From: Rhizobiales bacterium CCH10-E5
GTDB taxonomy: Bacteria > Pseudomonadota > Alphaproteobacteria > Rhizobiales > Beijerinckiaceae
Direction of reading: 5' to 3'
Length of the DNA stretch: 64,000 nt
Assembly: GCA_001556125.1 (NCBI GenBank)
Contig: LSIG01000110.1
Coordinates: forward strand, 124,001-188,000
Part shown: positions 50,119 to 64,000 of the stretch, piece by piece
Numbering within the stretch: the stretch's first letter is position 1
Layout of the letters: the number at the start of each line of letters is the position of its first letter
Notes under the pieces: generated by a model
Databases searched by the model: none
What the model saw: the letters and a program-made list of their open reading frames with translations, nothing else
What the model was told of the DNA's origin: nothing
Made by a program: the position numbers and the translations under genes

Positions 50119-50859
50119 TCAGCGCGGGGCGGTTGCCGCAACCGCCGCACGGCGCGGGCTCACCCCCTCGCCCTGCTCCGCCCGGAAGGCGGCGATGGCC
50201 TCCTCCAGCAAGCCCTCGAGCGAGGGGCCGGCGTCGTCGCAGACGATCGGGCGCAGCCGCGTCTCGACCAGCGAGAGATGACTGCTCATCGCCTTGACCG
50301 CCCTGCCGCGCTCGCGGCCCGCCAGCGCCTTGAAGATCAGCCGGTGTTCCTCGCAGCCGCAGGCGGAGCCGAGCGTCGTCTCATATCGCTTCACCAGCAT
50401 GATCGTCCGGCCGATCAGCTCGTGCGCCTGACGCTGGACGATGGGGTTGCCGATCATCTCCGCCAGCAGGAAGTGGAACTCCGCCGAAAGCTTCTGCCAG
50501 GTCGCCTGGTCGCCGCGGCGCAGGGCGTCGGCCTCCGCATCGACATGCTCGCGCAGCCGCTCGATCTGCGCCTCGGTCAGATGGTCGGCGAGATGGGCGA
50601 CCATGCCGCTCTCGAGGATGCGGCGGGCCTCGTAGACGACCCGGCCCTCGCGCAGATCCGGCTCGATGGTGAAAGCGCCGCGGTTCTTGACGACCTCCAG
50701 CAGCCGCTCATGGCCGAGACGGTGCAGCACCTTGCGGACGCGCTCGCGGCTGACGCCGAAGAGCTCGGCGAGACGATGCTCGCCGAGCTTCATGCCGCCC
50801 GGCAGCAAGCCTCCCAGCAGCAGGCGCGAGAGGATCGTATGGATCGCCGCTTCGTTCAT
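50119..50859 (-). CDS. GntR family (FCD) regulator of the nitrogen-compound island
   Basis: A GntR/FadR-type regulator. The N-terminal winged helix-turn-helix includes LPGGMKLGEHRLAELFGVSR followed by ERVRKVLHRL, and the FCD ligand domain has metal-binding-type acidic/His residues in EFHFLLAEMIGN and MSSHLSLVE. I use the start at MNEAAIHTIL, 246 residues. An ATG 22 codons upstream (50925) is possible, but the paired operator at 50937-50975 would then touch the start. It is divergent from the sigma-54-driven ABC operon, its likely target. Confidence 0.9.
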   Translation of the reverse strand: MNEAAIHTILSRLLLGGLLPGGMKLGEHRLAELFGVSRERVRKVLHRLGHERLLEVVKNRGAFTIEPDLREGRVVYEARRILESGMVAHLADHLTEAQIERLREHVDAEADALRRGDQATWQKLSAEFHFLLAEMIGNPIVQRQAHELIGRTIMLVKRYETTLGSACGCEEHRLIFKALAGRERGRAVKAMSSHLSLVETRLRPIVCDDAGPSLEGLLEEAIAAFRAEQGEGVSPRRAAVAATAPR

Positions 50860-50936
50860 GCCGCCCGTCTCGACATCACTGCTCCGCCTGCGAACCGACC
50901 GCCCGCCATCAGTCCATCCTAGCATCGACCGGGCCG

Positions 50937-50975
50937 ATTTTTATGCACATTCGGGAAGCGATTGTGCACAAAAAT
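50937..50975. promoter_or_regulatory. Paired GntR operator
   Basis: Two half-palindromic boxes, ATTTTTATGCACA and TGTGCACAAAAAT, form a 13-bp inverted repeat with one mismatch and a 13-base spacer. The right box itself contains the perfect palindrome TTGTGCACAA. The centres are 21 bp apart, two helical turns. The site lies between the divergent gntR and the ABC operon. GntR/FCD proteins commonly bind such A/T-flanked GTGCAC-type boxes, so this is the best operator candidate for the regulator. Confidence 0.65.
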
Positions 50976-51090
50976 CACGCCAATGCCGCTCGCAACGGGC
51001 TCAACCGGGGCGCAGAGATCGATTCCGCCTCTCCGCCTAAAAGACTGATATCATTATTTTTATTTGCGCCTTGCTACTGTAACCCGCTCT

Positions 51091-51106
51091 TGGCACGACG
51101 GTTGCT
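51091..51106 (+). promoter_or_regulatory. Sigma-54 (RpoN) promoter of the ABC-deacetylase operon
   Basis: TGGCAC-N5-TTGCT matches the sigma-54 -24/-12 consensus exactly (GG and GC dinucleotides with correct spacing). It would start transcription near 51117, leaving a 45-base leader with GAGAGG before the binding-protein ATG. This implies enhancer-dependent, probably NtrC-type nitrogen control. Confidence 0.8.
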
Positions 51107-51161
51107 GACCTCTCCCAATGTTCGCGCCGTCGGGAGCGCGCCGCATTCGAGAGGTCCGACC

Positions 51162-52211
51162 ATGGATATGCTGTCCGCAGGCAAGCCGAACCGCCGCGCA
51201 CTCCTCAAAGCGGGCCTGGGCGCCACGGCGCTGATCGCCGCCCCGTCCGTGCTGCGGGCCCAAACGAAGGAACTCGTCGTCGGCGGCGCCGCCGGGCACA
51301 AGCCCTGGGTCGAGCAGACCGTCGTGCCGATGTTCGAGAAGAAATATAACTGCAAGGTGATCTTCGAGGGCACGCGCTCGCTTGTGAACCTCGAGAAGAT
51401 GCAGAAAAACAAGGACAAGCCCTACATGTCCGTCGTCCAGATGGACGATCCGGTCATGATCCTGGCGGTCAAGGAAGGGCTACTCGAGCCGCTCACCGTG
51501 GCCAAGGCGCCGAACATGGCCGATCTCCTGCCCGGCTCGACCCATATGGACGGCATGTGGGCCAATTATCTCCAGCCCTGGCTCGGCGTCGCCTACAGCA
51601 AGGCCGCGATGAAGACCCCGCCCTCCTCCTGGGCCGAGATGTTCGACCCGAAATACAAGGGCCGCATCGTCATTCCCTCGCTGCAGAACACAGAAGGCCT
51701 GCCCTCGCTCTTCGTCGCCGGCCTGCTCGCGGGCGGGACGATGGAGAGCGTCCAGAAGGACACCGATGCCGGCTTCAAGAAGCTCGCCTCGCTGAAGCCG
51801 AACCTGCTGACGATCTACACGCAGCAGCCGCAGGCCTTCAATCTGCTCGAGCAGGGCGAGGCCTGGATGATCGGGCCGGCGATGTCCTCCTATGCGCTGG
51901 AGCGCAAGGCGGCCGGTGCGCCGATCGACCTCGCCGCGCCGAAGGAAGGCGTCTTCGCCATGCCGTCGGGCATCGCGGTCGTGAAGGGCTCGCCGCAGCA
52001 GGAGCTCGCCTTCGCCTATGTCAACGAGCTGCTCGGCGCCGAGCTGCAGAACAAGCTGGCGGGGCCGACCTTCTCGATCGGCACCAACAAGGCGGTGCCG
52101 AAACCAGCGGGCCTCGGCGCCGACGTGAAGATCCACCAGATCGACTGGGCCAATGTCGCGGCCCAGCGCGGCGACTGGATCAAGCGCTGGGATCGCGAGA
52201 TGGCGATCTGA
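51162..52211 (+). CDS. Polyamine/spermidine-type ABC transporter substrate-binding protein
   Basis: A 349-residue binding protein with a twin-arginine signal (NRRALLKAGLGATALIAAPS ending LRAQ), so it should reach the periplasm folded. The mature part is of the PotD/AfuA-like class (GGAAGHKPWVEQTVVPMFEK, TGMWANYLQPWLGVAYSK-like MDGMWANYLQPW, FDPKYKGRI). It is the first gene after the sigma-54 promoter and heads an operon of at least seven genes. Confidence 0.93.
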   Translation: MDMLSAGKPNRRALLKAGLGATALIAAPSVLRAQTKELVVGGAAGHKPWVEQTVVPMFEKKYNCKVIFEGTRSLVNLEKMQKNKDKPYMSVVQMDDPVMILAVKEGLLEPLTVAKAPNMADLLPGSTHMDGMWANYLQPWLGVAYSKAAMKTPPSSWAEMFDPKYKGRIVIPSLQNTEGLPSLFVAGLLAGGTMESVQKDTDAGFKKLASLKPNLLTIYTQQPQAFNLLEQGEAWMIGPAMSSYALERKAAGAPIDLAAPKEGVFAMPSGIAVVKGSPQQELAFAYVNELLGAELQNKLAGPTFSIGTNKAVPKPAGLGADVKIHQIDWANVAAQRGDWIKRWDREMAI

Positions 52212-52213
52212 GC

Positions 52214-53284
52214 ATGAGCCCCGGTTTCCTGTCCGTCGCGGGAGCGGCCAAGACCTTCGGCGCCGCCACCGTGCTCGACGGCGTCGATCTCGCGATGGAC
52301 CGCGGCGAGTTCGTCTCGCTGCTCGGCCCCTCGGGCTGCGGCAAGACCACGCTGCTGCGGATCGTCGCCGGGCTGATGCGGCCCGATCAGGGCCGCGTCG
52401 CGCTCGACGGGCAGGACATCACGAGGCTGCCGCCGCACAAGCGCGACGTCAGCGTCGTGTTCCAGAGCTATGCGCTGTTTCCGCATCTCACGGTGGCGGA
52501 GAATGTCGCCTTCGGCCTCAAGGCGCGCGGCGCGCCCTCGGGCGAGATCGCGCCGGCGGTGAAGCGCTTTCTCGACCTCGTTCAGATGGGCGCCTATGCC
52601 GAGCGCTCGATCAAGGCGCTGTCAGGCGGCCAGCAGCAACGTGTCGCCGTGGCGCGTGCGCTCGTCGTCGGGCCGAAGCTTCTGCTGCTCGACGAGCCCT
52701 TCTCGGCGCTCGACCGCAAGCTGCGCGAGACCATGCAGATCGACCTCAAGCGCCTGCTGCGCGAGGTCGGCACCACCGCGATCTTCGTCACGCATGACCA
52801 GGACGAGGCGCTGACGATGTCGGACCGGATCGCAGTGATGCATCGCGGCCGGATCGAGCAGCTGGATACGCCGGCCGCGATCTATGCCAGGCCGGCGACG
52901 CCCTTCGCGCTCGGCTTCGTCGGGCTGTCGACACGGCTTCCCGGCACGGTGACCGAATCCACCGACGGCATCGTCACGGTGGCGACGCAGGCCGGCCCGC
53001 TGCGCGGCCCGGGCCACTTCCTGCCCGGCAGCCCGGTTCTGCTCGGCGTGCGGCCGGAGCGCATCGCGCTCGACCATGGCGGCGCCAACCGGATCGAGGC
53101 GCCGCTCGCGGACGCCGCCTTCCAGGGGGCGCGGGTGCAGTTGCATTTCCAGGCGCCGCCCGACGGGCAGATCCTGGTCGAGACGCCGTCCCTGCCGGCT
53201 GCAGCGGGTCCCGGCACGTCGCTGAAGATGTCCTGGGCGATCTACGACACGCTGGTCTACCCAGCACCGAGCGCCGCGGCATGA
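52214..53284 (+). CDS. Spermidine/putrescine-type ABC transporter ATP-binding protein
   Basis: A 356-residue ATPase with Walker A GPSGCGKTT, Q-loop VVFQSYALFPHLTV, signature LSGGQQQRV, Walker B LLLLDEPFSALD, switch His in FVTHDQDEAL, and a C-terminal TOBE regulatory domain (GVRPERIALDHGG). This is the PotA class. It follows the binding-protein gene by 2 bases and overlaps the first permease by 4. Confidence 0.95.
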   Translation: MSPGFLSVAGAAKTFGAATVLDGVDLAMDRGEFVSLLGPSGCGKTTLLRIVAGLMRPDQGRVALDGQDITRLPPHKRDVSVVFQSYALFPHLTVAENVAFGLKARGAPSGEIAPAVKRFLDLVQMGAYAERSIKALSGGQQQRVAVARALVVGPKLLLLDEPFSALDRKLRETMQIDLKRLLREVGTTAIFVTHDQDEALTMSDRIAVMHRGRIEQLDTPAAIYARPATPFALGFVGLSTRLPGTVTESTDGIVTVATQAGPLRGPGHFLPGSPVLLGVRPERIALDHGGANRIEAPLADAAFQGARVQLHFQAPPDGQILVETPSLPAAAGPGTSLKMSWAIYDTLVYPAPSAAA

Positions 53285-54117
53285 GCGCCTCGCGACGCGT
53301 CGATCCCGTGCTGCTGCTGGCCCTGCCGGCAGTGCTTTATCTCGCCCTCGTCTACGGCGTGCCGCTGCTGATGCTGCTCGGCCGCAGCATCATGTCCGGC
53401 GGCGTCCCCTCGCTGGCGCCGTTCATCGGGTTCCTCTCCGATCCCTTCAGCTGGACCGTGATCGGCAACACGCTGCGCATCGCGGTGCTGGTCACGCTGC
53501 TGTGCCTGCTGATCGGCTATCCGACGGCGCTCGCCCTGGCGCGGGCACGCGGCGCGGCTCAGGCGCTGATCCTGGTCGCGATCATCCTGCCGCTCTCGGT
53601 CGGCGTCGTGGTCAAGGCCTTCGCCTGGCAGATCGTGCTGCGGCGCGACGGCGTGGTCTCGCAGCTGATGATGGGGCTCGGCCTGTGGAGCGAGCCGCAG
53701 CGCCTGCTCTTCACCGAGGCCGGGCTCGTGATCGGCGCGGCCAATGTCTTCGTGCCCTTCATGATCCTGCCGATCTATTCCGTCCTGAAGCTGGTCGATC
53801 CGCGGCTCGGCGAGGCGGCGGCGACGCTGGGCGCCTCGCCGCTCTACCGCTTCTTCAAGGTCGCCCTGCCCCTCTCGCTGCCCGGCATCGTCACCGGCGT
53901 CGCCTTCGTCTTCTCGATGGCGGCCTCGATGTATGTCATCCCCAACCTGCTGATCGGCGACCGTTTCCAGACGCTGGCGACGCTGACCGGGCGATCCTTC
54001 CTGTTCATGCGCAACGAGCAGCTGGGATCGACGACGGCGGTCGTCCTGCTCGTGCTGACGGTTGCGGTCGTGGTCGGCAGCGCCGCGCTCTCGAAGCGGC
54101 TGGGAGGCGCGTCGTGA
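53281..54117 (+). CDS. ABC transporter permease (PotB type)
   Basis: A 278-residue permease with six membrane segments. The coupling motif EAAATLGASPLYRFFKVALPLSLPG docks on the ATPase. PotB-like, it pairs with the following PotC-like permease. The start overlaps the ATPase stop (ATGA), and its stop overlaps the next gene's GTG (GTGA). Confidence 0.94.
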   Translation: MSASRRVDPVLLLALPAVLYLALVYGVPLLMLLGRSIMSGGVPSLAPFIGFLSDPFSWTVIGNTLRIAVLVTLLCLLIGYPTALALARARGAAQALILVAIILPLSVGVVVKAFAWQIVLRRDGVVSQLMMGLGLWSEPQRLLFTEAGLVIGAANVFVPFMILPIYSVLKLVDPRLGEAAATLGASPLYRFFKVALPLSLPGIVTGVAFVFSMAASMYVIPNLLIGDRFQTLATLTGRSFLFMRNEQLGSTTAVVLLVLTVAVVVGSAALSKRLGGAS

Positions 54118-54914
54118 CGGCCATCGAGCGCATCGCCTCGGCCGTCGTCTGGGGTCTGGCCGCCTTCACTGTGGTCTTCCTGCTGACGCCGCTCGTCGTC
54201 AGCGTGCTGGTGTCCTTCGGCTCCAGCGCCGTCTTCACCCTGCCGGCGCCGAGCTGGTCGCTGCGCTGGTACCACGCGCTCGGCCGTTCGCGCGAGCTCT
54301 GGCCGGTGGTCGCCACCTCGGTCCAGCTCGCGGCGGCGTCGACTGCGATTGCGCTTCTGCTCGGAACGCTCTGCGCCATCGGCCTGCTGCGCGGCCAGTT
54401 CCGCGGCCGCGACGGCATCGTCACCTTCCTGGTCTCGCCGCTGATGCTGCCCGGCCTCGTCATCGGCATCGCGATGCTGGAGAGCTTCCGGGCGGCGGGC
54501 CTGCGCGACGTGTGGCTGAGCCTGATCCTGGCCCATGTCGTGATCACGCTGCCTTACGTCGTGCGCACCGTCTATGCGGCGCTCTCCCTGTTCGACTTCA
54601 CGCTGATCGACGCCGCCCGCACGCTCGGCCTGTCCTATCCCAAGGCTGTTCTCAAGGTGCTGGTGCCCTCGCTCGCCCCGGCCTTCCTCACCTCGGGAAT
54701 GTTCGCTTTCCTGGCGTCGATGGACAATTATCCGATCTCGATCTTCTTCACCGACGCCTGGACCAAGACATTGCCCATACAGATGCTGCAATATGTCGAG
54801 GAGAGCCCCGATCCGACGATCGCGGCGATCTCCGCCCTGCTGATCCTGCTCGCCGCCGCCGTGCTCGTCATCGGCGACCGGCTGGTGGGCCTGCGCCGGA
54901 TGGCCGATCTCTGA
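54114..54914 (+). CDS. ABC transporter permease (PotC type)
   Basis: A 266-residue permease from a GTG start that overlaps the previous stop. The coupling motif is DAARTLGLSYPKAVLKVLVP, and ASMDNYPISIFF is the usual PotC end region. Six membrane segments. It completes the first transporter, and its stop overlaps the first deacetylase gene (TGATG). Confidence 0.94.
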   Translation: MTAIERIASAVVWGLAAFTVVFLLTPLVVSVLVSFGSSAVFTLPAPSWSLRWYHALGRSRELWPVVATSVQLAAASTAIALLLGTLCAIGLLRGQFRGRDGIVTFLVSPLMLPGLVIGIAMLESFRAAGLRDVWLSLILAHVVITLPYVVRTVYAALSLFDFTLIDAARTLGLSYPKAVLKVLVPSLAPAFLTSGMFAFLASMDNYPISIFFTDAWTKTLPIQMLQYVEESPDPTIAAISALLILLAAAVLVIGDRLVGLRRMADL

Positions 54915-55819
54915 TGGCTTCTCCCGCGAGCGACCGCGATTTCCGCGGCTATGGCAGCAATCCGCCCGCGATCCGCTGGCCGAACGACGCGCGGCTCGCC
55001 GTTTCCGTCGTGGTCAATGTCGAGGAGGGCGCGGAGCTCTCGATCGGCCAGGGCGACGAGCGCAACGAGAGCGTCTACGAGGTGGTCGAGGAGATCACCG
55101 GCGTACGCGATCTCTGCATGGAATCGCATTTCGAATACGGCCCGCGCGCCGGCTGGCCGCGCATCCGCGCGCTGCTGAAGCAATATGGCGTGGCGGCGAC
55201 GCTGAACGCCAATGGCCGCGCCGTCGCGCTCTCACCCTGGCTGGTGCAGGAGGCGGTCGCCGACGGGCATGAGGTCGCGGCCCATGGCTGGCGCTGGGAG
55301 CGGCACGCCCATATGGACGAGGCGCAGGAGCGCGAGGCGATCGCGCGCGCGGTTGCCGCGATCACGGAGGCCGCCGGTACGCCCCCCGTCGGCTGGCACA
55401 CGCGCTCGGCGACCTCGCTCAACACCCGCCGGCTCCTGCGCGAGCATGGCGGCTTCCTCTATGATTCCAACGCCTACAATGACGACCTTCCCTTTCTGGT
55501 CGATGTCGAGGGCGGGCCGCATCTGGTGCTGCCCTATGCCTTCGACACCAACGACATGCGCTTCCAACGTGGTGGCGGCTTCGTCTTCGGGGACGATTTC
55601 GCGCGCTACTGCATCGACGCCTTCGACCGGCTCTACGCAGAAGGCGGCACGGCGCCACGGATGATGTCGGTGGGCTTGCACCTGCGCATCATCGGCCGGC
55701 CCGGACGGATCGGCGGGCTCGAGCGCTTCCTGGCGCATGCGGCGTCAAAGCCCGGCGTCTGGTTCGCGCGGCGCGACGCGATCGCGCGGCATTGGCTGGC
55801 GGAACTGGGGAAGAGTTGA
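54914..55819 (+). CDS. PuuE-type polysaccharide deacetylase/allantoinase-like protein 1
   Basis: A 301-residue NodB-fold hydrolase of the PuuE branch. It starts DFRGYGSNPPAIRWPNDARL, has NVEEGAEL where CE4 deacetylases have TFDDG, AAHGWRWERHAHMDEAQERE with the His-Trp-Arg motif, and SVGLHLRIIGRPGR near the end. In Pseudomonas, PuuE is a metal-independent allantoinase that opens the allantoin ring. Two paralogues lie nearby. The genetic link to an ABC transporter and amidohydrolase suggests action on a ureide or cyclic amide. Confidence 0.9.
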   Translation: MASPASDRDFRGYGSNPPAIRWPNDARLAVSVVVNVEEGAELSIGQGDERNESVYEVVEEITGVRDLCMESHFEYGPRAGWPRIRALLKQYGVAATLNANGRAVALSPWLVQEAVADGHEVAAHGWRWERHAHMDEAQEREAIARAVAAITEAAGTPPVGWHTRSATSLNTRRLLREHGGFLYDSNAYNDDLPFLVDVEGGPHLVLPYAFDTNDMRFQRGGGFVFGDDFARYCIDAFDRLYAEGGTAPRMMSVGLHLRIIGRPGRIGGLERFLAHAASKPGVWFARRDAIARHWLAELGKS

Positions 55820-55834
55820 CGTCAGTTGCACTCG

Positions 55835-55880
55835 ACGCCGTCATCCCGGGTCTCCCTCCGGTCGCCCGGGATGACGGCGT
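55835..55880. repeat. Large palindrome between deacetylase genes
   Basis: Perfect 16-bp arms, ACGCCGTCATCCCGGG and its reverse complement, enclose a 14-base loop. The outer CGTCAT and CCCGGG resemble the ends of the other palindromic repeats in this window. It lies in the 78-bp gap between the first two deacetylase genes and would form a very strong RNA hairpin. Confidence 0.85.
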
Positions 55881-55897
55881 GAACTAGGATCGGCCGC

Positions 55898-56806
55898 ATG
55901 ACCCACCGCGACCTCGAAGGCTATGCCGGCGCCTGGCCGGACTTCACCTGGCCCAATGGCCGGCGGCTCGCCGTCTCCGTCGTGATCAATTTCGAGGAGG
56001 GCGCGGAGCTTCAGGTCGGCGACGGCGATGCGCGCTCGGAGAGCATGGGCGAGGTGATCAGCGTCGTTCCCGCCGGCAAGCGCGACCAGGGCCAGGAGCA
56101 GATTTTCGGCTATGGCACGCGCGCCGGGCTCTGGCGCATGCTCGACGCGCTCGACGACAACGCCATCCGCGCGACGATCTTCTTCTGCGGCCGCGCCGTC
56201 GAACGCTCGCCGGCGCTAGCGAAGGCCGTGGTGGCGCGCGGCCATGAGCCGGCGGTGCATGGCTGGCGCTGGCGGCCGCACGCCGATTACGAGACGCCTC
56301 AAGCGGAGGCTGCCGACCTCGACGCCTGCGTCGCCACCATCACGGCAGCGACGGGTGTCGCGCCCGTCGGCTTCTTCTGCCGCGGCGGGGAGAGCCCCTG
56401 GACGCGGGAGCTTCTGGCCCAGCGCGGCTTTCTCTACACCTCCAACGGCTTCGACGACGATTTGCCCTATTGGGATCGCGCACCGGGGCGCCCGCCCCTG
56501 CTCGTCGTGCCCTATGCGCTCGACAGCAACGACCTGAAGTTCTTCCACCCCAACGGCTTCGTCCGTGCCCGCGAGATGGTGGAGTACGTCACCGACGCGC
56601 TCGACGTGCTGGAGGCGGAGGCCGCGCGCGGCCTGCCGCGGCTGCTCAATCTCGGCTTCCACTTGCGGATCGTCGGGCGCCCGGCGCGCTTCGCCGCCTT
56701 TCGCGACATCATGAACCTGCTGGCGGTCCGGCGCGACCGACTCTGGATCGCGGGCCGCGCCGAGATCGCGCGCGCCTTCATCGCCGCCGTGCCGGAGAGC
56801 CCCTGA
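55898..56806 (+). CDS. PuuE-type polysaccharide deacetylase/allantoinase-like protein 2
   Basis: A 302-residue paralogue of the previous protein. It starts RDLEGYAGAWPDFTWPNG, has NFEEGAEL, AVHGWRWRPHADYETPQ and NLGFHLRIVGRPAR. It differs more from canonical PuuE than the third copy does, for example lacking GYGxNPP. Its stop overlaps the racemase-family gene (TGATG). It could be the partner of the first, acting on a related ring. Confidence 0.9.
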   Translation: MTHRDLEGYAGAWPDFTWPNGRRLAVSVVINFEEGAELQVGDGDARSESMGEVISVVPAGKRDQGQEQIFGYGTRAGLWRMLDALDDNAIRATIFFCGRAVERSPALAKAVVARGHEPAVHGWRWRPHADYETPQAEAADLDACVATITAATGVAPVGFFCRGGESPWTRELLAQRGFLYTSNGFDDDLPYWDRAPGRPPLLVVPYALDSNDLKFFHPNGFVRAREMVEYVTDALDVLEAEAARGLPRLLNLGFHLRIVGRPARFAAFRDIMNLLAVRRDRLWIAGRAEIARAFIAAVPESP

Positions 56807-57462
56807 TGCGCCTGCTGCTGATCAACCCCAACACCAATGCCGCCACGACCAACATGATGCGTGCCATCGCCCAGGCGGCGGCGCCGGGCGGCACCGTGAT
56901 CGACGCGATGAGCGCGCCCTATGGCGTGCCGCTGATCACGAATGAAGAGGCACTGGCGCAGTCGGCGAAGGCGGTGCAGGCGCTGACGGGGACGATCACC
57001 ACGACCCCGCCGGACGGCGTCATCATCGCCGCCTTCGGCGATCCCGGCCTGGCGGCGCTGCGGCTTCGCCTCTCCTGCCCGGTCACCGGCATCGCCGAGG
57101 CCGGCATGGCCGAGGCGGGAGCGGGCCGGCGGCCCTTCGCGGTGGTGACGACGACGCCCGATCTCGTCGCCTCGATCACCGGGCTCGCCCAGGCCTACGG
57201 CCATGACAAGACGTTCCGGGGCGTCGCGCTGACGAAGGGCGACGTCCACGCCATCATGGCCGATCACGCCACGCTGGTGGAGGCGCTGGCCGAGGCCTGC
57301 AAGGAGGCGATCGAGACGCTGGGCGCGCAGGCGCTGGTGATCGGCGGCGGCCCGCTCGGCCAGGCGGCGCAATCCCTCTCGCTGCGCTTCCCAGTACCGG
57401 TGATCGCGCCGATCCCCGCGGCGGTGCGGCTGGCGCAGAAGCGGGTTTCGCGAGGGCATTGA
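56806..57462 (+). CDS. Aspartate/glutamate/hydantoin racemase family protein lacking both catalytic cysteines
   Basis: A 218-residue protein of the Asp/Glu/hydantoin racemase superfamily (NPNTNAATTNMM start, FGDPG motif). Hydantoin racemases use Cys76 and Cys181. At these exact positions this protein has Ala76 (IIAAFGDPG) and Gly181 (LVIGGGPLGQ), so the two-base racemase mechanism is not available. It may act by another chemistry, bind a ligand, or be inactive. It is the last gene of the sigma-54 operon, followed by a large palindrome. Confidence 0.88.
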   Translation: MRLLLINPNTNAATTNMMRAIAQAAAPGGTVIDAMSAPYGVPLITNEEALAQSAKAVQALTGTITTTPPDGVIIAAFGDPGLAALRLRLSCPVTGIAEAGMAEAGAGRRPFAVVTTTPDLVASITGLAQAYGHDKTFRGVALTKGDVHAIMADHATLVEALAEACKEAIETLGAQALVIGGGPLGQAAQSLSLRFPVPVIAPIPAAVRLAQKRVSRGH

Positions 57463-57492
57463 GCGTCGCTTCTGGGGGCCGCCGAACCTCCA

Positions 57493-57639
57493 CCGTCATT
57501 CCGGGGCTTCGCGGCAGCGAAGAGCCCGGAACCCAGAACCGATGCCGTTGGGTGCTGGGACAAAGCGCTCGACTGGTCCCTGAGACGTTATCGGTTCTGG
57601 GTTCCGGGCTCAGGCCTTCGGTCTGCCCCGGAATGACGG
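57493..57639. repeat. Nested palindromic intergenic repeat, type B copy 1
   Basis: An outer 14-bp inverted repeat (CCGTCATTCCGGGG and its complement) encloses a perfect 21-bp inner pair at 57523-57543 and 57590-57610, with a further GGGAC/GTCCC in the loop. It separates the convergent racemase-family and amidohydrolase genes. A similar, degraded element lies at 62075-62201. Confidence 0.85.
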
Positions 57640-57677
57640 CCTGGTTCCGGGCACATGGGTAGTTTCGACGTCGCCCG

Positions 57678-59228
57678 TCAGAAGCGCCCGCTCGGGCGGT
57701 AGAAGGGCTCGTCGCCCTGCCCGTCGAGATAGCCGTCATAGAAGCGGCGGACATGCGGCAGCAGCGCCTGCGAGAGGGCGATGCGGTCCCGCTCGGCCGG
57801 CGATTTCGGCTTCGCCAGCGCCTCGGCGAGGCCAGCCAGAACGGCGTCGCGGTCGATCCTGGTGAAGCGGCGCTCGCGATAGACGAATTCGCCGGCGATC
57901 ATGACGCTGTGGACGGCCTTCGCCTTGGCGCGCTGGACCAGCACCTCGACGAAGCCGAGGCCATCGTCCTGATAGGGATAGGTCACCGCCGGCCAGTCGA
58001 ACATCACGAGATCGACCGCCATGCCAGGCTCGAGCCGGCCGATGCGGCCGGCGAAGGGGGTCGTGCGCGCCCCGCCTTCGGTCGCCATGCGCAGCACCTG
58101 CGCCGGCGAGGGATGGGGCGCGTCGATGCCGGGCTCGCGATGGGCGCGCAGGACGAGCCGCATCTCCTGCAGCATGTCGCGGTCGTCGTTGATGCCGGCC
58201 TCGTCGATGCCGATGGCGACGGGGATTTTGCGGGCGAGGAAGCGGTTGACCGGCGCCACGCCGCTCTTCAGCCGGAAGTTCGAACTGCAATTGTGGCAGA
58301 TGCAGACGCCGCGATCGGCCGCGAGCTCGATATCGGCCTCGCTCATCCAGACGCCGTGGCCGATGGTGAAATGCGGGCCGAGCAGGCCGAGCCGGTCGAG
58401 ATGGGCGAGCGCCGAGCCGCCCGTGCGCTTGAGGGCATAGGCCTTCTGATAGGGCGTCTCAAGCACATGCATATGGACCGGCAGACCGGTGCGGCGCTGC
58501 AGCTCGCCGGTGACACTGAGCGCTTCCTCCGAGAGCCAGTGCAAATTGGCGGGCGCGATCTGGATGCGGATGCGCCCGGCCTCGCCCTCGCCCCGACCAT
58601 GGCGCGCCAGTAATTCCTCGAAAACTGCAACCTGGTCGGAGAGCGGCACGGTGAAGCGCTGGAAGAAGGCGCTCGCGGCCGGGCGCAGCTCCTCGGGCAG
58701 ACGAGCGACGAAATCCTGGTCGGCCTCGTAGACGAGCCGGTTCTGGTCGCGCAGCGCCATCGAGTAGGAGGCGCGCATGCCGATATCGCGATAGGCGCTG
58801 ATGACCTTCTCGGCGGCAGCAAGGATGTCGGCCGGCGTACCCGGCGCGCGGCTGTGGAGATGCTGAACGGTGGTGACGCCGCTCTCGATCATCTCGAAGG
58901 CGGAGAACAGCGTGTCGGCGTAGAGATCGACATCGCGCAGCGCGATGCGGCTGGCGAACCAGAGTTCGAGCGGGTGGTCCGGCGAGCCGAGTTGCAGCGG
59001 CGTCAGGCCGACATGGTGATGCGCGTTGACGAAGCCCGGCGTGATCGCGAAGTCACGCCCGCCGGTCACCGTCGCTTCGGGATTGGCCGCCTTCAGATCG
59101 GCGAGCGGCCCGGTCGCGACGATGATGCCGCCCTCGCAGGCGACACCGGCGTCCTGCAGGACGACCGGCTCGCCTGCGGCGTCGAAGCCGGTGAGGAGCG
59201 TCCCGCCCCAGATGATCTGTGTGGTCAT
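57678..59228 (-). CDS. ATZ/TRZ-type amidohydrolase (cyclic amidine/guanine-deaminase-like)
   Basis: A 516-residue metal-dependent amidohydrolase. The metal-binding His pair is in ITPGFVNAHHHVGLT, followed by HMHVLET, GHGVWMSEADI (His) and the catalytic Asp in IAIGIDEAGINDDRD. This is the ATZ/TRZ group that deaminates or dechlorinates heterocycles, with 8-oxoguanine deaminase and cytosine/guanine deaminases in the same fold. It is 100-150 residues longer than common members, mainly in the middle and C-terminus. The substrate is unknown. It lies 2 bases after the NHL gene on the same strand. Confidence 0.92.
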   Translation of the reverse strand: MTTQIIWGGTLLTGFDAAGEPVVLQDAGVACEGGIIVATGPLADLKAANPEATVTGGRDFAITPGFVNAHHHVGLTPLQLGSPDHPLELWFASRIALRDVDLYADTLFSAFEMIESGVTTVQHLHSRAPGTPADILAAAEKVISAYRDIGMRASYSMALRDQNRLVYEADQDFVARLPEELRPAASAFFQRFTVPLSDQVAVFEELLARHGRGEGEAGRIRIQIAPANLHWLSEEALSVTGELQRRTGLPVHMHVLETPYQKAYALKRTGGSALAHLDRLGLLGPHFTIGHGVWMSEADIELAADRGVCICHNCSSNFRLKSGVAPVNRFLARKIPVAIGIDEAGINDDRDMLQEMRLVLRAHREPGIDAPHPSPAQVLRMATEGGARTTPFAGRIGRLEPGMAVDLVMFDWPAVTYPYQDDGLGFVEVLVQRAKAKAVHSVMIAGEFVYRERRFTRIDRDAVLAGLAEALAKPKSPAERDRIALSQALLPHVRRFYDGYLDGQGDEPFYRPSGRF

Positions 59229-59230
59229 GC

Positions 59231-60085
59231 CTACTCGTCCAGCAGACGCAGCCGCGTCAGCCGGCTCGGATTGCTCTCGGCCAGCAGGATGTCGCCACCC
59301 GGCATGCCGTAGATGCCGTGCGCGCCGTTGAGGAAGGGGCGGCAGCGGCCGAGGCGCTCGCCATGGGGACCGATCTTCTGCAGGGTCGGCTGGTTGTCGG
59401 TGACATAGGTGTTGCCGTCCTCGTCGCCCCAGATCGCGACGGGGTCGCGGAAATGGCTCCAGGTCGCGAGATGCTGGCCATTTCGGTCGAAGACCTGGAC
59501 GCGGTTGTGCGTGCGGTCGACGACGACGACGCGTCCATCGGCATGAGTCCAGAGCGCATGCGGCCAGCCGAACTGGCCTTCGCCGGCGCCATGCTCGCCC
59601 CAGCTCTGGAGGTGGACGCCAAAGGCCGAGAAGCGGTGGATGCGGCTCGCGGCATAGCCATCGGCGACATAGATGTCGCCCCAGGCCGAGACATGCACGT
59701 CGGTCGGGTGGTTGAAGGGCGAAAGCGGCTCGCTGCGCTGGCCGAGGCCGCCCAGGCGCTCGCCGCTCGCCGAGCAGATGACGATCTCATGCATGTCGCG
59801 ATCGACGCAGAGGAGACGCCCCTGCGCATCGACGGTGAGCATGTGGGAATCGGCGATCAGGTCGCCGCCCCAGCCGCCGAGATACTCCCCCTCGGGCGAT
59901 AGCTCGACCACACGCGGATCGTCGGGTTGGGTCAGGGGATCGTGCCGCAGCATGACGAAGATATGCCCGCGGGCATCGACCGTCACATCGGTGACGAAGC
60001 CGGCATTCTGCGGCCAGGAGCCGAAGGGCCGCTCGATCAGGTAGCGGGCATCGCCGAGGGCGACGATGAGGTCGGGCTTGGGCAA
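59231..60085 (-). CDS. Cytoplasmic NHL-repeat beta-propeller protein
   Basis: A 284-residue protein of about five NHL repeats (DVTVDARGHIFVMLR, DVHVSAWGDIYVADGY, VVVVDRTHNRVQVFD, AIWGDEDGNTYVTDN), with no signal peptide. The start is TTG, since the frame has no ATG near it. The propeller resembles peptidyl-amidoglycolate lyase-like and gluconolactonase-like folds, but I cannot assign catalysis. It is coupled to the amidohydrolase. Confidence 0.85.
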   Translation of the reverse strand: MPKPDLIVALGDARYLIERPFGSWPQNAGFVTDVTVDARGHIFVMLRHDPLTQPDDPRVVELSPEGEYLGGWGGDLIADSHMLTVDAQGRLLCVDRDMHEIVICSASGERLGGLGQRSEPLSPFNHPTDVHVSAWGDIYVADGYAASRIHRFSAFGVHLQSWGEHGAGEGQFGWPHALWTHADGRVVVVDRTHNRVQVFDRNGQHLATWSHFRDPVAIWGDEDGNTYVTDNQPTLQKIGPHGERLGRCRPFLNGAHGIYGMPGGDILLAESNPSRLTRLRLLDE

Positions 60086-60118
60086 GGGGGCATCCTATCG
60101 TGAAAGGGCTGCGCCCGG

Positions 60119-60195
60119 CGTCATTCCCGGCCGGAGCGCAGCGGAGAGCCGAGAATCTCCGGCAGGAGATGCTCGGGTCAAGCCCGAGCATGACG
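60119..60195. repeat. Palindromic intergenic repeat, type A copy 2
   Basis: The element has the type A plan: CGTCATTC at the left, GAGAATCTCCGGCAGGAG, then ATGCTCGGG-TCAAG-CCCGAGCAT and TGACG. It is almost identical to the copies at 14836 and 61143. It lies between the NHL gene start and the end of the third deacetylase gene. Confidence 0.85.
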
Positions 60196-60199
60196 CGCG

Positions 60200-61108
60200 T
60201 CAGGCCGGCTGGAAAGGATGCGTCTTCGCCCAGTGCTTCGCAATGTCGAGCCGGCCGGTCACCCAGACGTTCTCGTGCTTCTGGACATAGTCGAGGAAGC
60301 GCGCGAGGCCCGCCGCGCGGGCGGGGTGGCCGATCAGGCGCATATGCAGGCCGACCGACATCATCTTGGGCTGGGTCGCCCCTTCCGCATAGAGCATGTC
60401 GAAGGCGTCCTTGTGCCAGTCGAAATAGTCGTTCGAGGTGGCGAAGAAGCCCGAGCCGAACTTGCCGTCATTGTTGACGAGCGAATAGGGCACGACGAGA
60501 TGCGGCTTGCCGTCGACCACCTTCCAATAGGGCAATTCGTCGTCATAGGCGTCGGAATCGTAGAGGAAACCGCCCTCCTCCACGACGAGCCGCCGCGTGT
60601 TCACGCTGGGCCCATAGCGGCAGTACCAGCCGAGCGGACGCTCGCCGACCGTGGCTTCGAGCGACTTGATCGCCTTGGCGATATGCTCGCGCTCCTCGTC
60701 CTCGGTGAGATCGTAGTGCTTGATCCAGCGCCAGCCATGGCAGCAGACGTCGAAACCGGACGCCCGGATCGCAGCCGCAGCGTCGGGGTTGCGCTCGATC
60801 GCGAGCGCGCAGCCGAACACCGTCATCGGCAGGCCGCGCTCCTGGAACAGCCGCATCAGCCGCCAGAAGCCGACACGGCTGCCATAGGCGAACATGCCCT
60901 CGCCGGCGAGGTCACGGCCCTTGACCCCGGTCGGCAGGCCGTTGGCCTCGGTCAGGCCGAGTTCGGTGTAGCCCTCGCCGTCCTGGACGGAGGGCTCGGA
61001 ACCTTCCTCGTAGTTCATCACGAAGTTGATCGCGATGCGGGCACCACCCGGCCATTGCGGATTGGGCGGGTTGGCGCCGTAGCCGATCAGGTCGCGGTCG
61101 TAGGTCAT
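60200..61108 (-). CDS. puuE: PuuE allantoinase-type polysaccharide deacetylase protein 3
   Basis: The 302-residue product is the most canonical of the three paralogues. It starts RDLIGYGANPPNPQWPGGAR, shows NYEEGSEPS, MFAYGSRVGFWRLMRLF, CCHGWRWIKHYDLTEDEERE, GWYCRYGPSVNTRRLVVEEG and SVGLHMRLIGHPAR. This is the pattern of Pseudomonas PuuE allantoinase, which hydrolyses allantoin without metal. The start is the second ATG (MTYDRD), as GGAG stands six bases upstream. It could supply allantoin or a close ureide breakdown. Confidence 0.9.
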   Translation of the reverse strand: MTYDRDLIGYGANPPNPQWPGGARIAINFVMNYEEGSEPSVQDGEGYTELGLTEANGLPTGVKGRDLAGEGMFAYGSRVGFWRLMRLFQERGLPMTVFGCALAIERNPDAAAAIRASGFDVCCHGWRWIKHYDLTEDEEREHIAKAIKSLEATVGERPLGWYCRYGPSVNTRRLVVEEGGFLYDSDAYDDELPYWKVVDGKPHLVVPYSLVNNDGKFGSGFFATSNDYFDWHKDAFDMLYAEGATQPKMMSVGLHMRLIGHPARAAGLARFLDYVQKHENVWVTGRLDIAKHWAKTHPFQPA

Positions 61109-61142
61109 GTCAGTCTCCATCCCGCAGGCATGCTGGCGAACA

Positions 61143-61219
61143 CGTCATTCTAGGGCGGAGCGAAGCGCAGACCCGAGAATCTCCGGCACGAGATGCTCGG
61201 GTCGAGCCCGAGCATGACG
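61143..61219. repeat. Palindromic intergenic repeat, type A copy 3
   Basis: Same plan as the copies at 14836 and 60119: CGTCATTC, GAGAATCTCCGGCACGAG, ATGCTCGGG-TCGAG-CCCGAGCAT, TGACG. It fills most of the gap between the third deacetylase gene and the second transporter's permease gene. Confidence 0.85.
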
Positions 61220-61241
61220 CGCCATATCGCCGTGCTAAGCT

Positions 61242-62060
61242 TCACCCGCTCATCCGCCGCGTCAGGCCGGTCAGGCGGTCCATCACGATCATCAGGATCA
61301 GCGTCGCCAGGATCAGCACGCCGGCGATGGCGGCGATGCGGACGTCGAGCGTCGTCTCCATCATCCCCCACATCCGGATCGGCAGCATGGCCGTGCGCGC
61401 GGTCGAGAGGAAGAGCGAGACCGGGACATTGTCCATCGAGGAGATGAAGGCGAGGAAGCAGCCTGCCGCGATCCCTGGCGCGATCAGCGGCAGGGTGATG
61501 CGACGGAAGCCGTAGAGGCGGCTGGCACCGAGATTGGCGGAGGCCTCGAGCAGGACCGGATCGAGCTGCGACAGGCTCGCCAGCGTGGTGCGGAAGACGA
61601 AGGGCGCGATCACCACGAGATGGCCCGCGATCAGCAGGTTGAGCGAGGGCCTGATGCCGAGCACCGAGAAGAACATCAGCGCGGCCAAGCCGTAGGACAG
61701 CGTCGGCAGCACGAGCGGCGACAGGAAGCTCGCCTCCAGCACGCGCGCCGAGGGCCGCGCGACCCGTGAGATCGCCAGAGCCGCAAACACGGCGAGCACG
61801 CCGCCGATGGCGGTGGCGAGGCCGGCGACCCAGAGGCTGTTCAGCGCGGCCGTGTGGATCTGGGCCGAGCGGGTGGTGTCGAACAGCTCGCCATACCAGC
61901 GCAGCGACAGGCCGGGCGGCGGAAACTTCAGGGTCTGCGACGTCGTGAAGGAGGTCGCGATGACGACCAGCACCGGCCCGACCAGGATGAGGATGCCGAG
62001 TCCCGCGAGCAGGCCGATGATCCAGGAATAGCCGATGTCACCGAGCGTGGACCGCTGCAT
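61242..62060 (-). CDS. ABC transporter permease (PotC type), second transporter
   Basis: A 272-residue permease with six membrane segments. The coupling motif is EASANLGASRLYGFRRITLP, and SSMDNVPVSLFLS is the PotC end region. It lies downstream of the PotB-type permease on the same strand, separated by a palindromic repeat. No ATPase of this transporter is within the window. Confidence 0.92.
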   Translation of the reverse strand: MQRSTLGDIGYSWIIGLLAGLGILILVGPVLVVIATSFTTSQTLKFPPPGLSLRWYGELFDTTRSAQIHTAALNSLWVAGLATAIGGVLAVFAALAISRVARPSARVLEASFLSPLVLPTLSYGLAALMFFSVLGIRPSLNLLIAGHLVVIAPFVFRTTLASLSQLDPVLLEASANLGASRLYGFRRITLPLIAPGIAAGCFLAFISSMDNVPVSLFLSTARTAMLPIRMWGMMETTLDVRIAAIAGVLILATLILMIVMDRLTGLTRRMSG

Positions 62061-62074
62061 GGCCTATTCCCCCT

Positions 62075-62201
62075 TGTCATTCCGGGGCGCGCCGACAGGC
62101 GCGAACCCGGAACCCACGACTGGGTCAATCGTGCAGGTTGTCTCTCGGCTCGCCCCATCATGGATTCTGGGTTCATCGCTGCGCGATGCCCCGGAAAGAC
62201 A
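62075..62201. repeat. Palindromic intergenic repeat, type B copy 2
   Basis: An outer 14-bp inverted repeat with one mismatch (TGTCATTCCGGGGC and GCCCCGGAAAGACA) and an inner imperfect pair with GGAACCCA / TCTGGGTTC-type arms. It is the same kind of element as that at 57493-57639, more degraded. It separates the two permease genes. Confidence 0.75.
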
Positions 62202-62224
62202 GCTGTGCAGGATCATCACAGTCA

Positions 62225-63097
62225 TCAGCTCGTCCTGGCGAAGCGGCCGAGCCAGCCGAGCGCCATGATGCCCGCCAGCACGGTGAAGAGCAGCGTCAGC
62301 GAGGCCACCGCCGCGAAGGGCCAGTTGTAAACCACCATCGACTGCTGCCAGATCAGCGAGGGCAGATAGACCAGCCGCGCCCCGCCGATGACCGATTGCG
62401 AGATGAAGGCGGTCGTTGCCGAGGCGAAGACCAGCGTCGCGCCGGCGATCCAGCCCGGCAGCGTCAGCGGCAGGATCACCCGGAAGAAGGTCCGCCATTT
62501 CGAGGCGCCGAGCGCGCGCGACGCATCGACGAGGTTCTGGTCCATCTGGTTCATGATGGTCAGGAGCGGCAGCAGCATCAGCGGCATCTCGATCTGCGTC
62601 AGCGCGATGACGAGGCCGAGCTCGGTCTGGAGCAGATTGAGCGGGGTCGAGGTCAGCCCGAGCCCGATCAGCGTCTGGTTGAGCACGCCCTCGCGCGCCA
62701 GGATGACGATCCAGGCGAAGGTGCGGATCACGACCGAGGTCAGGAGCGGCATCAGGATGATGAAGATCAGCAGGCGCTGCACGCGCGGGCTCGACGCCCG
62801 GAAGACCAGCGCGAGCGGATAGGCCAGCAGCGTCGTCGCCAGCACGGCCAAGACGCCGAGCTTGAGCGTGTCGAAGATCACCTTCCGGTAGAAGGCATCG
62901 CCATAGAACTTGGCCCAGGAGGCGAGCCCCAGCCGCGTCTGCTCGGCATCGGCATAGAAGCTGATGCCGAGCAGGATCGCAAAAGGCGCGGCAAAAAAGG
63001 CGAGATAGGTCAGGCCGAGCGGCGCCGCGAGGCGCCAGTCGACCCTGGCCCCCGGAACGCCACCGCTCGCGGCGGCCGCTGCAGCCATGCCCGCCAT
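62225..63097 (-). CDS. ABC transporter permease (PotB type), second transporter
   Basis: A 290-residue permease with six membrane segments. The coupling motif is DASRALGASKWRTFFRVILP. It follows the binding-protein gene (gap 9 bases) and precedes the PotC-type permease. The second transporter thus has the order binding protein, PotB, PotC. The N-terminus is Ala-rich and the first ATG may be too early by a few codons. Confidence 0.93.
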   Translation of the reverse strand: MAGMAAAAAASGGVPGARVDWRLAAPLGLTYLAFFAAPFAILLGISFYADAEQTRLGLASWAKFYGDAFYRKVIFDTLKLGVLAVLATTLLAYPLALVFRASSPRVQRLLIFIILMPLLTSVVIRTFAWIVILAREGVLNQTLIGLGLTSTPLNLLQTELGLVIALTQIEMPLMLLPLLTIMNQMDQNLVDASRALGASKWRTFFRVILPLTLPGWIAGATLVFASATTAFISQSVIGGARLVYLPSLIWQQSMVVYNWPFAAVASLTLLFTVLAGIMALGWLGRFARTS

Positions 63098-63106
63098 CGC
63101 TGCGTC

Positions 63107-64000
63107 CTACTTGGTGATTTCCTTGTTGAATCGCTCGATCCAGGCGGCGCGCTGCGGGTTGATCACCGTCCAGTCATGCGTGACCATCGTCGCCAGTTCG
63201 TCGAGCGACTTGATGTCGAGCGTCTCGACCAGCTTCACGTCCTTGTTGATCGGGACCATGTTATAGGGCTGCTTCTGCAGCTCGGCCTGAACATCCGACG
63301 AGATCGCGGTGTCGATGTATTTGTAGGCGTTGGCGACGTTGTCGGCACCCTTCACGATGTGCAGCGTGGTCTGGAAGGTGATCGCGCCGGTCTCGGGCTT
63401 GATGAACTCGATATCGACGCCACGACCCTTCAGCGTCGCGACCGTGTTGGTGTTGGTGTACATGATGTCGATCTGGCCCTGCTGGAACAGGCCGGGCATG
63501 GCGGCGGGCGCGGCGACCGCAGCCGCCTTCGAGACGGCCTTCTTCAGCTCAACGAAGACCGGCTCGACATTGGTGGCGGAGCCGCCGAAGACCTTCGCCA
63601 TCTCGATGATCGAGACCGTGCCGAAGGTGGTCTGGAAGCCGGTGAGGCCCAGCCGCTCGACGTAAGGCGACTTGAACAGGTCGGCCCAGCCCTTGGGAGG
63701 CGTGGCGAACTTCTTCGGGTTGTACGCGATGCCGACGACCTGGGCGTTGCAAGTCACGCCATGCGACTTGATCAGGCCGGTCGGGATCTTCGCGGCGTTG
63801 GTCAGCTTGGCGGGATCGATCGGCTCGAACAGACCGGCGGCCTGCGCCGCTGCGGCCGGGCCGGGATCCAGCACGAAGCAGTCGAAGGGCGGCACGCCGC
63901 GCGCGGCGCGCACCTTGGCGACCTGATCGACGGCGAACAGCGCGTCGAAGGCGACGTCGACGCCGGCGTTCTTCTTGAGCGCCGGAGCGACGACGCCGCG
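63107..64000 (-). CDS. ABC transporter substrate-binding protein, second transporter (5' end outside window)
   Basis: The open frame continues through the right edge of the window without a start, so 297 C-terminal residues are present and the signal peptide is missing. The protein is of the Fe3+/spermidine-type class (PFDCFVLDPGPAAAAQAAGL, GITCNAQVVGIAYNPKKF-like SHGVTCNAQVVGIAYNPKKF, FQQGQIDIMYTNTNTVATL). It is linked to the PotB- and PotC-type permeases downstream. Confidence 0.92.
   Translation of the reverse strand, partial: RGVVAPALKKNAGVDVAFDALFAVDQVAKVRAARGVPPFDCFVLDPGPAAAAQAAGLFEPIDPAKLTNAAKIPTGLIKSHGVTCNAQVVGIAYNPKKFATPPKGWADLFKSPYVERLGLTGFQTTFGTVSIIEMAKVFGGSATNVEPVFVELKKAVSKAAAVAAPAAMPGLFQQGQIDIMYTNTNTVATLKGRGVDIEFIKPETGAITFQTTLHIVKGADNVANAYKYIDTAISSDVQAELQKQPYNMVPINKDVKLVETLDIKSLDELATMVTHDWTVINPQRAAWIERFNKEITK

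What the first reader, a model, noticed from the sequence alone, without database searches (positions are those of the whole stretch)
50119..64000. Uncharacterised nitrogen-compound utilisation island with three PuuE paralogues
One block carries a GntR/FCD regulator, two polyamine-type ABC transporters (one complete, one without its ATPase in view), three PuuE-type deacetylase/allantoinase-like proteins, a racemase-family protein, an ATZ/TRZ amidohydrolase and an NHL propeller. Known allantoin or hydantoin clusters hold one or two of these, but I know of no described pathway with this full set and no ureidoglycolate or uricase genes. A plausible use is opening of a cyclic ureide/amide whose ring is attacked stepwise. 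The substrate is unknown.
Basis: partly seen in the sequence, partly recalled or inferred. Interest (0 to 1): 0.72.

Follow-up and report, generated by a model that had tools for sequence, protein, structure and literature searches.

The report
Ureide-opening island with substitute propeller lyase
A soil-bacterium gene island seems to import and open small nitrogen-rich rings, and one of its proteins, built like an animal hormone-processing enzyme, appears to stand in for the usual enzyme that splits the opened ring into urea and glyoxylate.

Summary
The window is Bosea-like. Two tight operons converge: GntR | ABC1-PuuEa-PuuEb-"racemase", and ABC2-PuuEc-NHL-amidohydrolase (the missing ATPase lies beyond the window in relatives). 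The PuuE-like proteins are not the genome's allantoinase: all score below the curated cut-off, each has its own conserved substrate-loop signature, and 11 of 12 related genomes carry a canonical PuuE elsewhere. The "racemase" lacks both catalytic cysteines (120 of the 120 best homologues). The NHL propeller keeps the active-site residues of peptidyl-hydroxyglycine amidating lyase (PAL), which cleaves N-acyl-hydroxyglycine to glyoxylate. In 34 neighbourhoods of the PuuEc clade, 14 have this NHL beside PuuEc, 11 an AllA-type ureidoglycolate lyase, 9 neither, 0 both; on the PuuEc tree NHL stands in at least two separate places, each next to AllA-bearing rows. Best explanation: a PAL-type lyase stands in for AllA, so PuuEc's product is ureidoglycolate or a close N-acyl-hydroxyglycine (ring for example 5-hydroxyhydantoin), cleaved to urea/amide and glyoxylate. 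The shared slot rests on comparison; chemistry and substrate are inferred, untested.

The parts
50119..50925 (-). GntR/FCD regulator
   Evidence: Pfam PF00392, PF07729
50936..50976 (.). Palindrome (18-nt arms, 5-nt spacer) between GntR and operon 1, candidate operator; core TTGTGCACAA
   Evidence: core and second half-site seen in 5 of 5 loci compared (window, L001, L002, L003, L005)
51162..52211 (+). SBP1, substrate-binding protein
   Evidence: Pfam PF13343/PF13416; start ATG
52214..53284 (+). ATPase1
   Evidence: PF00005
53281..54117 (+). Permease A1
   Evidence: ORF; syntenic in relatives; no family search
54114..54914 (+). Permease B1
   Evidence: ORF; GTG start; syntenic; no family search
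54914..55819 (+). PuuEa, PuuE-like, signature GWHTRSATSxNTRRL
   Evidence: TIGR03212 326.4 bits, cut-off 424.6; signature
55898..56806 (+). PuuEb, PuuE-like, signature GFFCRGGESPWTR
   Evidence: TIGR03212 258.4 bits; signature
56806..57462 (+). Cysteine-less member of the Asp/Glu/hydantoin racemase family
   Evidence: PF01177; both HpxA cysteines replaced
57678..59228 (-). ATZ/TRZ-type amidohydrolase (deaminase-like)
   Evidence: PF01979; H70, H72, H252, E257, H291, D342 each in 120 of the 120 best hits, the window's own protein being one of them
59231..60085 (-). NHL six-bladed propeller with PAL-type active site (R46, H80, Y143, H175, R190, H255; numbered without the start residue); proposed ureidoglycolate-lyase-type enzyme
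   Evidence: TTG start
60200..61120 (-). PuuEc, PuuE-like, signature GWYCRYGPSxNTR and HMRLIGHPAR (start 61120 or 61108)
   Evidence: TIGR03212 400.5 bits, below cut-off
61242..62060 (-). Permease B2
   Evidence: no family search
62225..63097 (-). Permease A2
   Evidence: no family search
63107..64000 (-). SBP2, cut by window end; its ATPase follows beyond the window in relatives
   Evidence: PF13416

Best explanation
The island is a ring-opening catabolic locus of two neighbouring operons. ABC2 imports a small cyclic ureide or amide. PuuEc, a metal-free PuuE-type hydrolase, opens the ring to an N-carbamoyl- (or N-acyl-) alpha-hydroxyglycine, most simply ureidoglycolate from 5-hydroxyhydantoin. 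The NHL propeller, a PAL-type zinc lyase, splits this to glyoxylate and urea (or an amide). It fills the slot that an AllA-type ureidoglycolate lyase fills in sister lineages. The amidohydrolase, PuuEa, PuuEb, the cysteine-less racemase-fold protein and ABC1 probably feed related rings (for example amino- or N-substituted forms) into the same end step. Shown by comparison: gene content, conservation, distinctness from the true allantoinase, active-site residues, mutual exclusion of NHL and AllA beside PuuEc and its recurrence on the tree. Inferred: every reaction, the substrate, the metal, and that NHL replaced AllA and not the reverse.
For: (1) A bacterial relative, L066, aligns to PAM chain 5wm0 so that rat PAL H585, Y654 and H690 can be counted in the printed alignment. 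The window protein has H80, Y143 and H175 at those places. R46, R190 and H255 are paired with R533, R706 and H786 by position and by recalled PAL numbering; one search names R706 and the Y654 equivalent as the catalytic dyad. All six window residues are kept in the 120 best of 541 homologues. (2) The model (pLDDT 93.8) matches 3fvz with the highest query TM-score of the 50 listed rows, 0.83. (3) Of 36 PuuEc-clade matches in 33 of 397 order-sample genomes, 34 had context fetched: NHL beside PuuEc 14, AllA (PF04115) 11, neither 9, both 0; Fisher two-sided p = 0.00066, ignoring kinship. (4) On the PuuEc tree NHL needs 2 changes and starred branches force at least 2; the two NHL sets join AllA rows L148/L149 (fork 100/98) and L160 (98/90). 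(5) PF04115 is found in 1 of 10 NHL-bearing genomes searched whole (control: E. coli only of 14 rang). (6) NHL homologues also lie near a D-hydantoinase-type gene in L011, L081, L086, L087, L088 and L123.
Against: No activity is known for any protein here. TRIM-type NHL domains, which are not lyases (recalled), score higher by sequence and as high by Z (3fvz 33.5 over 271 residues, rmsd 2.3; best row 35.5 over 260), so fold alone proves nothing. On the tree AllA needs 6 changes and 'neither' 5, the 16-row NHL clade is itself only 91/72, and the program warns of long branches meeting; so the direction of replacement is not established. Kinship inflates the NHL count: 7 of those 16 rows are nearly one sequence. 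In the second set (L093, L112) NHL lies on the strand opposite to PuuEc, and L093 begins inside PuuEc, so its other side is unseen. 9 of 34 loci have neither lyase; some have an amidase or an AtzD/TrzD-type gene nearby. AllA itself may have drifted in function in these clusters.
Confidence: 0.55

Rival explanations
1. Ordinary allantoin/purine catabolism: the island paralogues are extra allantoinases plus an allantoin racemase.
For: PuuEc reaches 400.5 of the 424.6 bits needed, and allantoinase 3cl6 is its top PDB hit. The racemase family includes allantoin racemase.
Against: All three fall below the cut-off. A canonical PuuE over the cut-off exists elsewhere in 11 of 12 genomes; of two such loci fetched, both are PuuE-UraD fusions and one was checked to lie with HIUase and a PuuD-type domain. 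The substrate loop differs in all three. Both racemase cysteines are absent.
Confidence: 0.12
2. The PuuE-like proteins are cyclic-imide or dihydropyrimidine-type hydrolases for unrelated substrates; the NHL protein is a binding or regulatory propeller and its exclusion of AllA is coincidence.
For: NHL domains of TRIM type match strongly. PuuEc-like genes also sit near AtzD/TrzD-type enzymes, HyuA and amidases, so the clade's substrates probably vary.
Against: The six catalytic positions are kept in the 120 best NHL homologues. The exclusion of AllA recurs in two parts of the tree.
Confidence: 0.18
3. One reading: one single pathway in which all enzymes attack one ring stepwise.
For: Operon-1 genes (PuuEa, PuuEb, racemase-like or ABC1) lie within the fetched stretch of 12 of 13 order-sample genomes whose PuuEc is at least 79% identical and NHL-linked; in the 13th (G258) the contig begins inside SBP2.
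Against: Operon 2 occurs without operon 1 beside it (L006), without the amidohydrolase (e.g. L012, L076, L085) or as ABC2, PuuEc and AllA (L148, L149). No palindrome like that before operon 1 was seen before ATPase2 in 8 loci (single half-sites in 2).
Confidence: 0.15

Closest known systems
PuuE allantoinase (Pseudomonas fluorescens, PDB 3CL6)
   Same: Sequence family; the NxEEGxE and HGxRW motifs and the NDxxF stretch; 3CL6 is described as non-metal-dependent (PMC10967932, passages)
   Different: Substrate loop and HCRL motif differ in each paralogue; below the TIGR03212 cut-off; not beside UraD, HIUase or urate oxidase in the island
[quoted passage not shown]
   Same: Six-bladed propeller; residues at the H585, Y654, H690 places (read) and R533, R706, H786 places (partly recalled)
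   Different: Bacterial, no PHM domain (only NHL in Pfam; signal peptide not tested); sits with ring-opening enzymes and importers
Ureidoglycolate lyase AllA/DAL3 (PF04115; EC 4.3.2.3)
   Same: Occupies the same place beside PuuEc in sister lineages; would make glyoxylate and urea
   Different: Cupin fold, nickel-dependent (PMC3793230, passages); the NHL protein has no PF04115 match
Allantoin racemase HpxA (PDB 3QVJ/3QVK)
   Same: PF01177 family; E 8e-23 to 3QVK
   Different: Both catalytic cysteines replaced, by Ala (or Gly) and Gly
Hydantoin-utilising (hyu) clusters
   Same: Ring-opening enzyme followed by a second cleavage (PMC3546935, passages); hydantoinase-type genes with importers beside NHL homologues in L086-L088, L123
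   Different: PuuE-type instead of hydantoinase-type opening, and a lyase instead of a carbamoylase, in the window

Membership tests
Allantoinase PuuE (TIGR03212) | Curated score 424.6 bits | tested here: not met
   PuuEa 326.4, PuuEb 258.4, PuuEc 400.5 bits
Allantoinase PuuE (TIGR03212) | Loop GxY-[TQ]GRxxxxT and HCRLxGRPxR seen in 3CL6 and the canonical copies L015-L025 | tested here: not met
   Different, subfamily-conserved motifs in all three
Allantoinase PuuE (TIGR03212) | NxEEGxE and HGxRW motifs in place of the CE4 metal motifs | tested here: met
PAL lyase | Zn ligands H585, H690, H786 and residues Y654, R706, R533 (roles of the histidines and R533 recalled; R706 and Tyr) | tested here: met
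   H585, Y654, H690 read via L066; the other three paired by position and recall; all six window residues in the 120 best homologues
PAL lyase | Six-bladed propeller fold | tested here: met
PAL lyase | Release of glyoxylate from N-acyl-hydroxyglycine | not testable with these tools
   needs an assay
Ureidoglycolate lyase AllA (PF04115) | Sequence membership | tested here: not met
   The NHL protein matches only PF01436
Ureidoglycolate lyase AllA (PF04115) | Same genomic slot (works like it) | tested here: met
   14 NHL, 11 AllA, 9 neither, 0 both of 34; at least two places on the tree
Allantoin/hydantoin racemase | Two catalytic cysteines (C79, C184 in HpxA; numbers recalled) | tested here: not met
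   0 of the 120 best of 3011 homologues keep either; 0 of 15 rows (window included; two rows are one gene)
ATZ/TRZ amidohydrolase | PF01979 and metal ligands (ligand roles recalled) | tested here: met
   H70, H72, H252, E257, H291, D342 in 120 of the 120 best of 3620 hits, own protein included
ATZ/TRZ amidohydrolase | Match over the cut-off of a named NCBIfam family (e.g. 8-oxoguanine deaminase) | tested here: not met
   Best 175 of 522 bits; 8-oxoguanine deaminase 170 of 532

The most novel reading that the evidence does not exclude
A PAL-fold zinc lyase, known in animals and algae as the second half of peptide amidation, is a second, unrelated ureidoglycolate lyase of bacteria. It has displaced AllA at least twice beside a PuuE paralogue that opens 5-hydroxyhydantoin-type rings, so that oxidised purine or pyrimidine ring fragments can be used as nitrogen source through an undescribed route ending in urea and glyoxylate.
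Probability: 0.35. Interest if true: 0.78.

Novelty: new variant of a known kind. Interest (0 to 1): 0.6.

Why it matters
If true, the chemistry behind peptide-hormone amidation has a metabolic counterpart in soil bacteria. Labels such as 'hypothetical protein', 'NHL repeat' or 'peptidylglycine monooxygenase' given by annotation pipelines would hide a nitrogen-releasing enzyme. PuuE would be a family of ring openers, not one allantoinase. Finding two unrelated lyases in one slot makes the substrate class directly testable: whatever PuuEc makes should be cut by both AllA and the NHL protein.

Tried and rejected
Simple allantoin operon: rejected. Racemization step by the two-cysteine mechanism: rejected. 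Single regulon: not supported; no palindrome like the GntR-side one within 500 bases upstream of ATPase2 in 8 loci, single half-sites in L005 and L006. Absence of TIGR03383 urate oxidase in 10 of 10 genomes was set aside, because a PuuD-type urate oxidase domain is present in the one locus tested (L126). Absence of allantoicase (0 of 13) shows nothing, as no control genome rang. AllC-like M20 enzymes match in 13 of 13 genomes, 0 over the cut-off, so they do not discriminate. Trimethylallantoin (caffeine) was considered: late steps are open in print (PMC4408171, passages); no search for caffeine genes was made. Amidohydrolase relatives were followed for a substrate hint: 8 of 327 class-sample genomes; a PuuE-, hydantoinase- or HyuB-type gene lies within the fetched stretch in 5 of 8 (G005), still no substrate. 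Wider NHL searches: 38 of 397 order genomes at E <= 1e-15, 12 of 385 class genomes and 11 of 398 phylum genomes at E <= 1e-30 (G005 counted each time); many are 35-38% relatives whose context was not followed. PDB searches spent to see the PAL alignment failed to print it because TRIM domains crowded the top rows; it was seen only for a relative. Paper searches: 'peptidylamidoglycolate lyase' with 'ureidoglycolate lyase', 'amidating lyase' with 'hydantoin' and with 'polysaccharide deacetylase' gave 0 papers each; 'amidating lyase' with 'ureidoglycolate' gave one coral proteome paper (listing); 'hydroxyglycine' with 'ureidoglycolate' gave 3 papers, of which two were read in passages without a PAL link and the third is the same coral paper; 'Bosea' with 'allantoin' gave 3 papers, listing only. 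The original PuuE paper is not held, so PuuE residue roles rest on motif comparison. The second structure-prediction job was not used.
Full report
WHAT IS THERE. They form two tight convergent operons: 51162-57462 (+), SBP1-ATPase1-PermA1-PermB1-PuuEa-PuuEb-racemase-family; and 64000-57678 (-), SBP2-PermA2-PermB2-PuuEc-NHL-amidohydrolase, with GntR divergent from the first (gaps). A scan of one-genome-per-species contigs with the NHL protein gave 14 loci: ten from Bosea records, one each labelled Beijerinckiaceae and Methylocystis, and two distant Dehalococcoidia. The whole arrangement including GntR is kept in L001, L002, L003 and L005; L011 has the rest without GntR in the fetched stretch, with the amidohydrolase turned round and a racemase-family gene of only 34% identity. 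PuuEc stands beside NHL in 10 of 14. In relatives an ATPase precedes SBP2, so the second transporter is complete. The window's own genome is not held.

THE PuuE PARALOGUES. Against TIGR03212 (cut-off 424.6) they score 326.4, 258.4 and 400.5 bits. In 12 genomes reached through the loci, 11 have another copy over the cut-off, 534-544 bits; the twelfth (G001) has two abutting pieces. Of two canonical loci fetched, both are PuuE-UraD fusions by Pfam, and in L126 an HIUase and a PuuD-type urate oxidase domain lie beside it. So the true allantoinase is elsewhere. The aligned motifs show what changed: all three keep NxEEGxE and HGWRW, but the loop that reads GWYTGRTGPNTRRL in allantoinase 3cl6 reads GWHTRSATSxNTRRL, GFFCRGGESPWTRxL and GWYCRYGPSxNTRxL, each kept with little change across its close orthologues, and the HCRL motif changes too. 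These are three distinct groups, presumably with different substrates. A wider PuuEc clade with GWYCR-type loops was found in 33 of 397 genomes of the order sample.

THE 'RACEMASE'. One search prints cysteine at both catalytic positions for 3qvj; the window protein has Ala and Gly there. In 15 rows (window included; L064 and L090 are one gene) and in the 120 best of 3011 database homologues neither position is cysteine. It is a cysteine-less branch and cannot racemize by the two-cysteine mechanism.

THE DISPLACEMENT. In 397 genomes of the order sample, 33 have PuuEc-clade matches at E <= 1e-110, 36 matches in all. Neighbourhoods were fetched for 34 of the 36 (G257 and G317 were not; G101 is represented by a second contig, L093, which begins inside PuuEc). 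With profiles for NHL and for AllA (the latter built from 12 hits in these same loci): NHL beside PuuEc in 14, AllA in 11, neither in 9, both in 0. AllA identity was checked by Pfam in L149 (E 2.7e-30) and in the class-sample locus L188 (2.5e-29). All 11 AllA genes lie on the PuuEc strand. Among the 11 extra loci given to the same call, L112 and nine loci have NHL and no AllA; L188 has AllA and no NHL. Fisher p = 0.00066 without correction for kinship. On a tree of 39 labelled PuuEc rows plus 5 outgroup rows, NHL needs two changes and the starred branches force at least two: 16 NHL rows join AllA rows L148/L149 (fork 100/98; the NHL clade itself 91/72), and two NHL rows join AllA row L160 (98/90). 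AllA needs six changes and 'neither' five, so lyase genes come and go, and the direction AllA to NHL is likely but not proven; the program also warns of long branches. L148 and L149 carry ABC2 too, so importer plus PuuEc plus a lyase recurs as a small set. No allantoicase-like gene was recognised by eye among the ORFs listed near them; no profile search was made there. A whole-genome search for PF04115 in ten NHL-bearing genomes rang in one, G010. AllA releases urea from ureidoglycolate (PMC3793230, passages). The simplest reading is that NHL and AllA do the same job on PuuEc's product.

LINK BETWEEN OPERONS. In 12 of 13 order-sample genomes with NHL-linked PuuEc of at least 79% identity, at least one of PuuEa, PuuEb, a racemase-like gene or ABC1 lies within the fetched stretch; in the 13th (G258) the contig begins inside SBP2. 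The arrangement varies: convergent in Bosea, divergent in L075, L076, L078, L079, L085, L094 and others. The association survives rearrangement. Yet L006 has only operon 2 in its stretch (an operon-1-like set lies elsewhere in that genome, L042), and a palindrome with core TTGTGCACAA lies before operon 1 in 5 of 5 loci and not before ATPase2 in 8 loci. Erosion is visible: L004 and L008 keep NHL without its neighbours, L007 keeps fragments of PermB2 and PuuEb, and the PuuEa of G004 has lost the HGWRW motif (L036).

OTHER NHL CONTEXTS. NHL homologues of 45-55% identity stand near a D-hydantoinase-type gene and, in four of five, an ABC1-like transporter (L081 without, L086, L087, L088, L123 with; family search done on L081 and L086), and with HyuA in L089 (44%). 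Other NHL loci (for example L082-L084) showed no such gene with the queries used. The recurring theme is ring opening followed by this lyase.

MECHANISM AND LIMITS. Proposed: import; PuuEc opens the ring to a ureido- or acyl-hydroxyglycine; the NHL lyase, with metal on H80/H175/H255, cleaves it to urea or amide and glyoxylate. 5-hydroxyhydantoin giving ureidoglycolate is the simplest substrate that needs no further enzyme; that is chemical inference, not a result. The roles of PuuEa, PuuEb, the amidohydrolase and the cysteine-less protein are open. The amidohydrolase keeps a complete ligand set but passes no named family's cut-off.

NOVELTY. In the held library the searches made found no paper joining a PAL-type enzyme with ureidoglycolate or hydantoin catabolism; subscription journals are mostly not in it. 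The kinds of parts are known; their combination and the shared lyase slot appear new.

Noticed in passing
window 55820-55897, 57463-57677, 60086-60199, 61121-61241, 62061-62224: Palindromic or repeated elements fill these intergenic gaps; two are 90% identical over 80 bases, with a weaker copy (72-75%) near 14833.
   Followed up: partly
L151:16072-17178 and L152:4036-5172: AtzD/TrzD-type ring-opening amidohydrolase (PF09663) near a 70%-identical PuuEc relative, hinting that the clade also serves barbiturate- or cyanurate-like rings.
   Followed up: partly
L148:6941-8671: Formate-tetrahydrofolate ligase (PF01268) close to PuuEc, AllA and a GntR/FCD gene.
   Followed up: no
L036, L169, L004 (same genome, G004): Decaying island: PuuEa has lost HGWRW and the NHL gene stands without the other island genes.
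   Followed up: partly
L006 about 4170 and L010 about 4271: A different GntR-family gene (31-33% identity) directly before ATPase2, suggesting operon 2 has its own regulator there.
   Followed up: no
window 13192-14202 and 14936-20711: Probable ACC deaminase and a urea-type branched-chain ABC transporter (recognised by eye, no family search).
   Followed up: no
amidohydrolase and racemase-family hit lists: By eye, 14 contig lengths occur in both lists (e.g. 98624, 41943, 220981, 192448), suggesting these two genes are linked beyond Bosea; L193 shows the pair side by side.
   Followed up: partly
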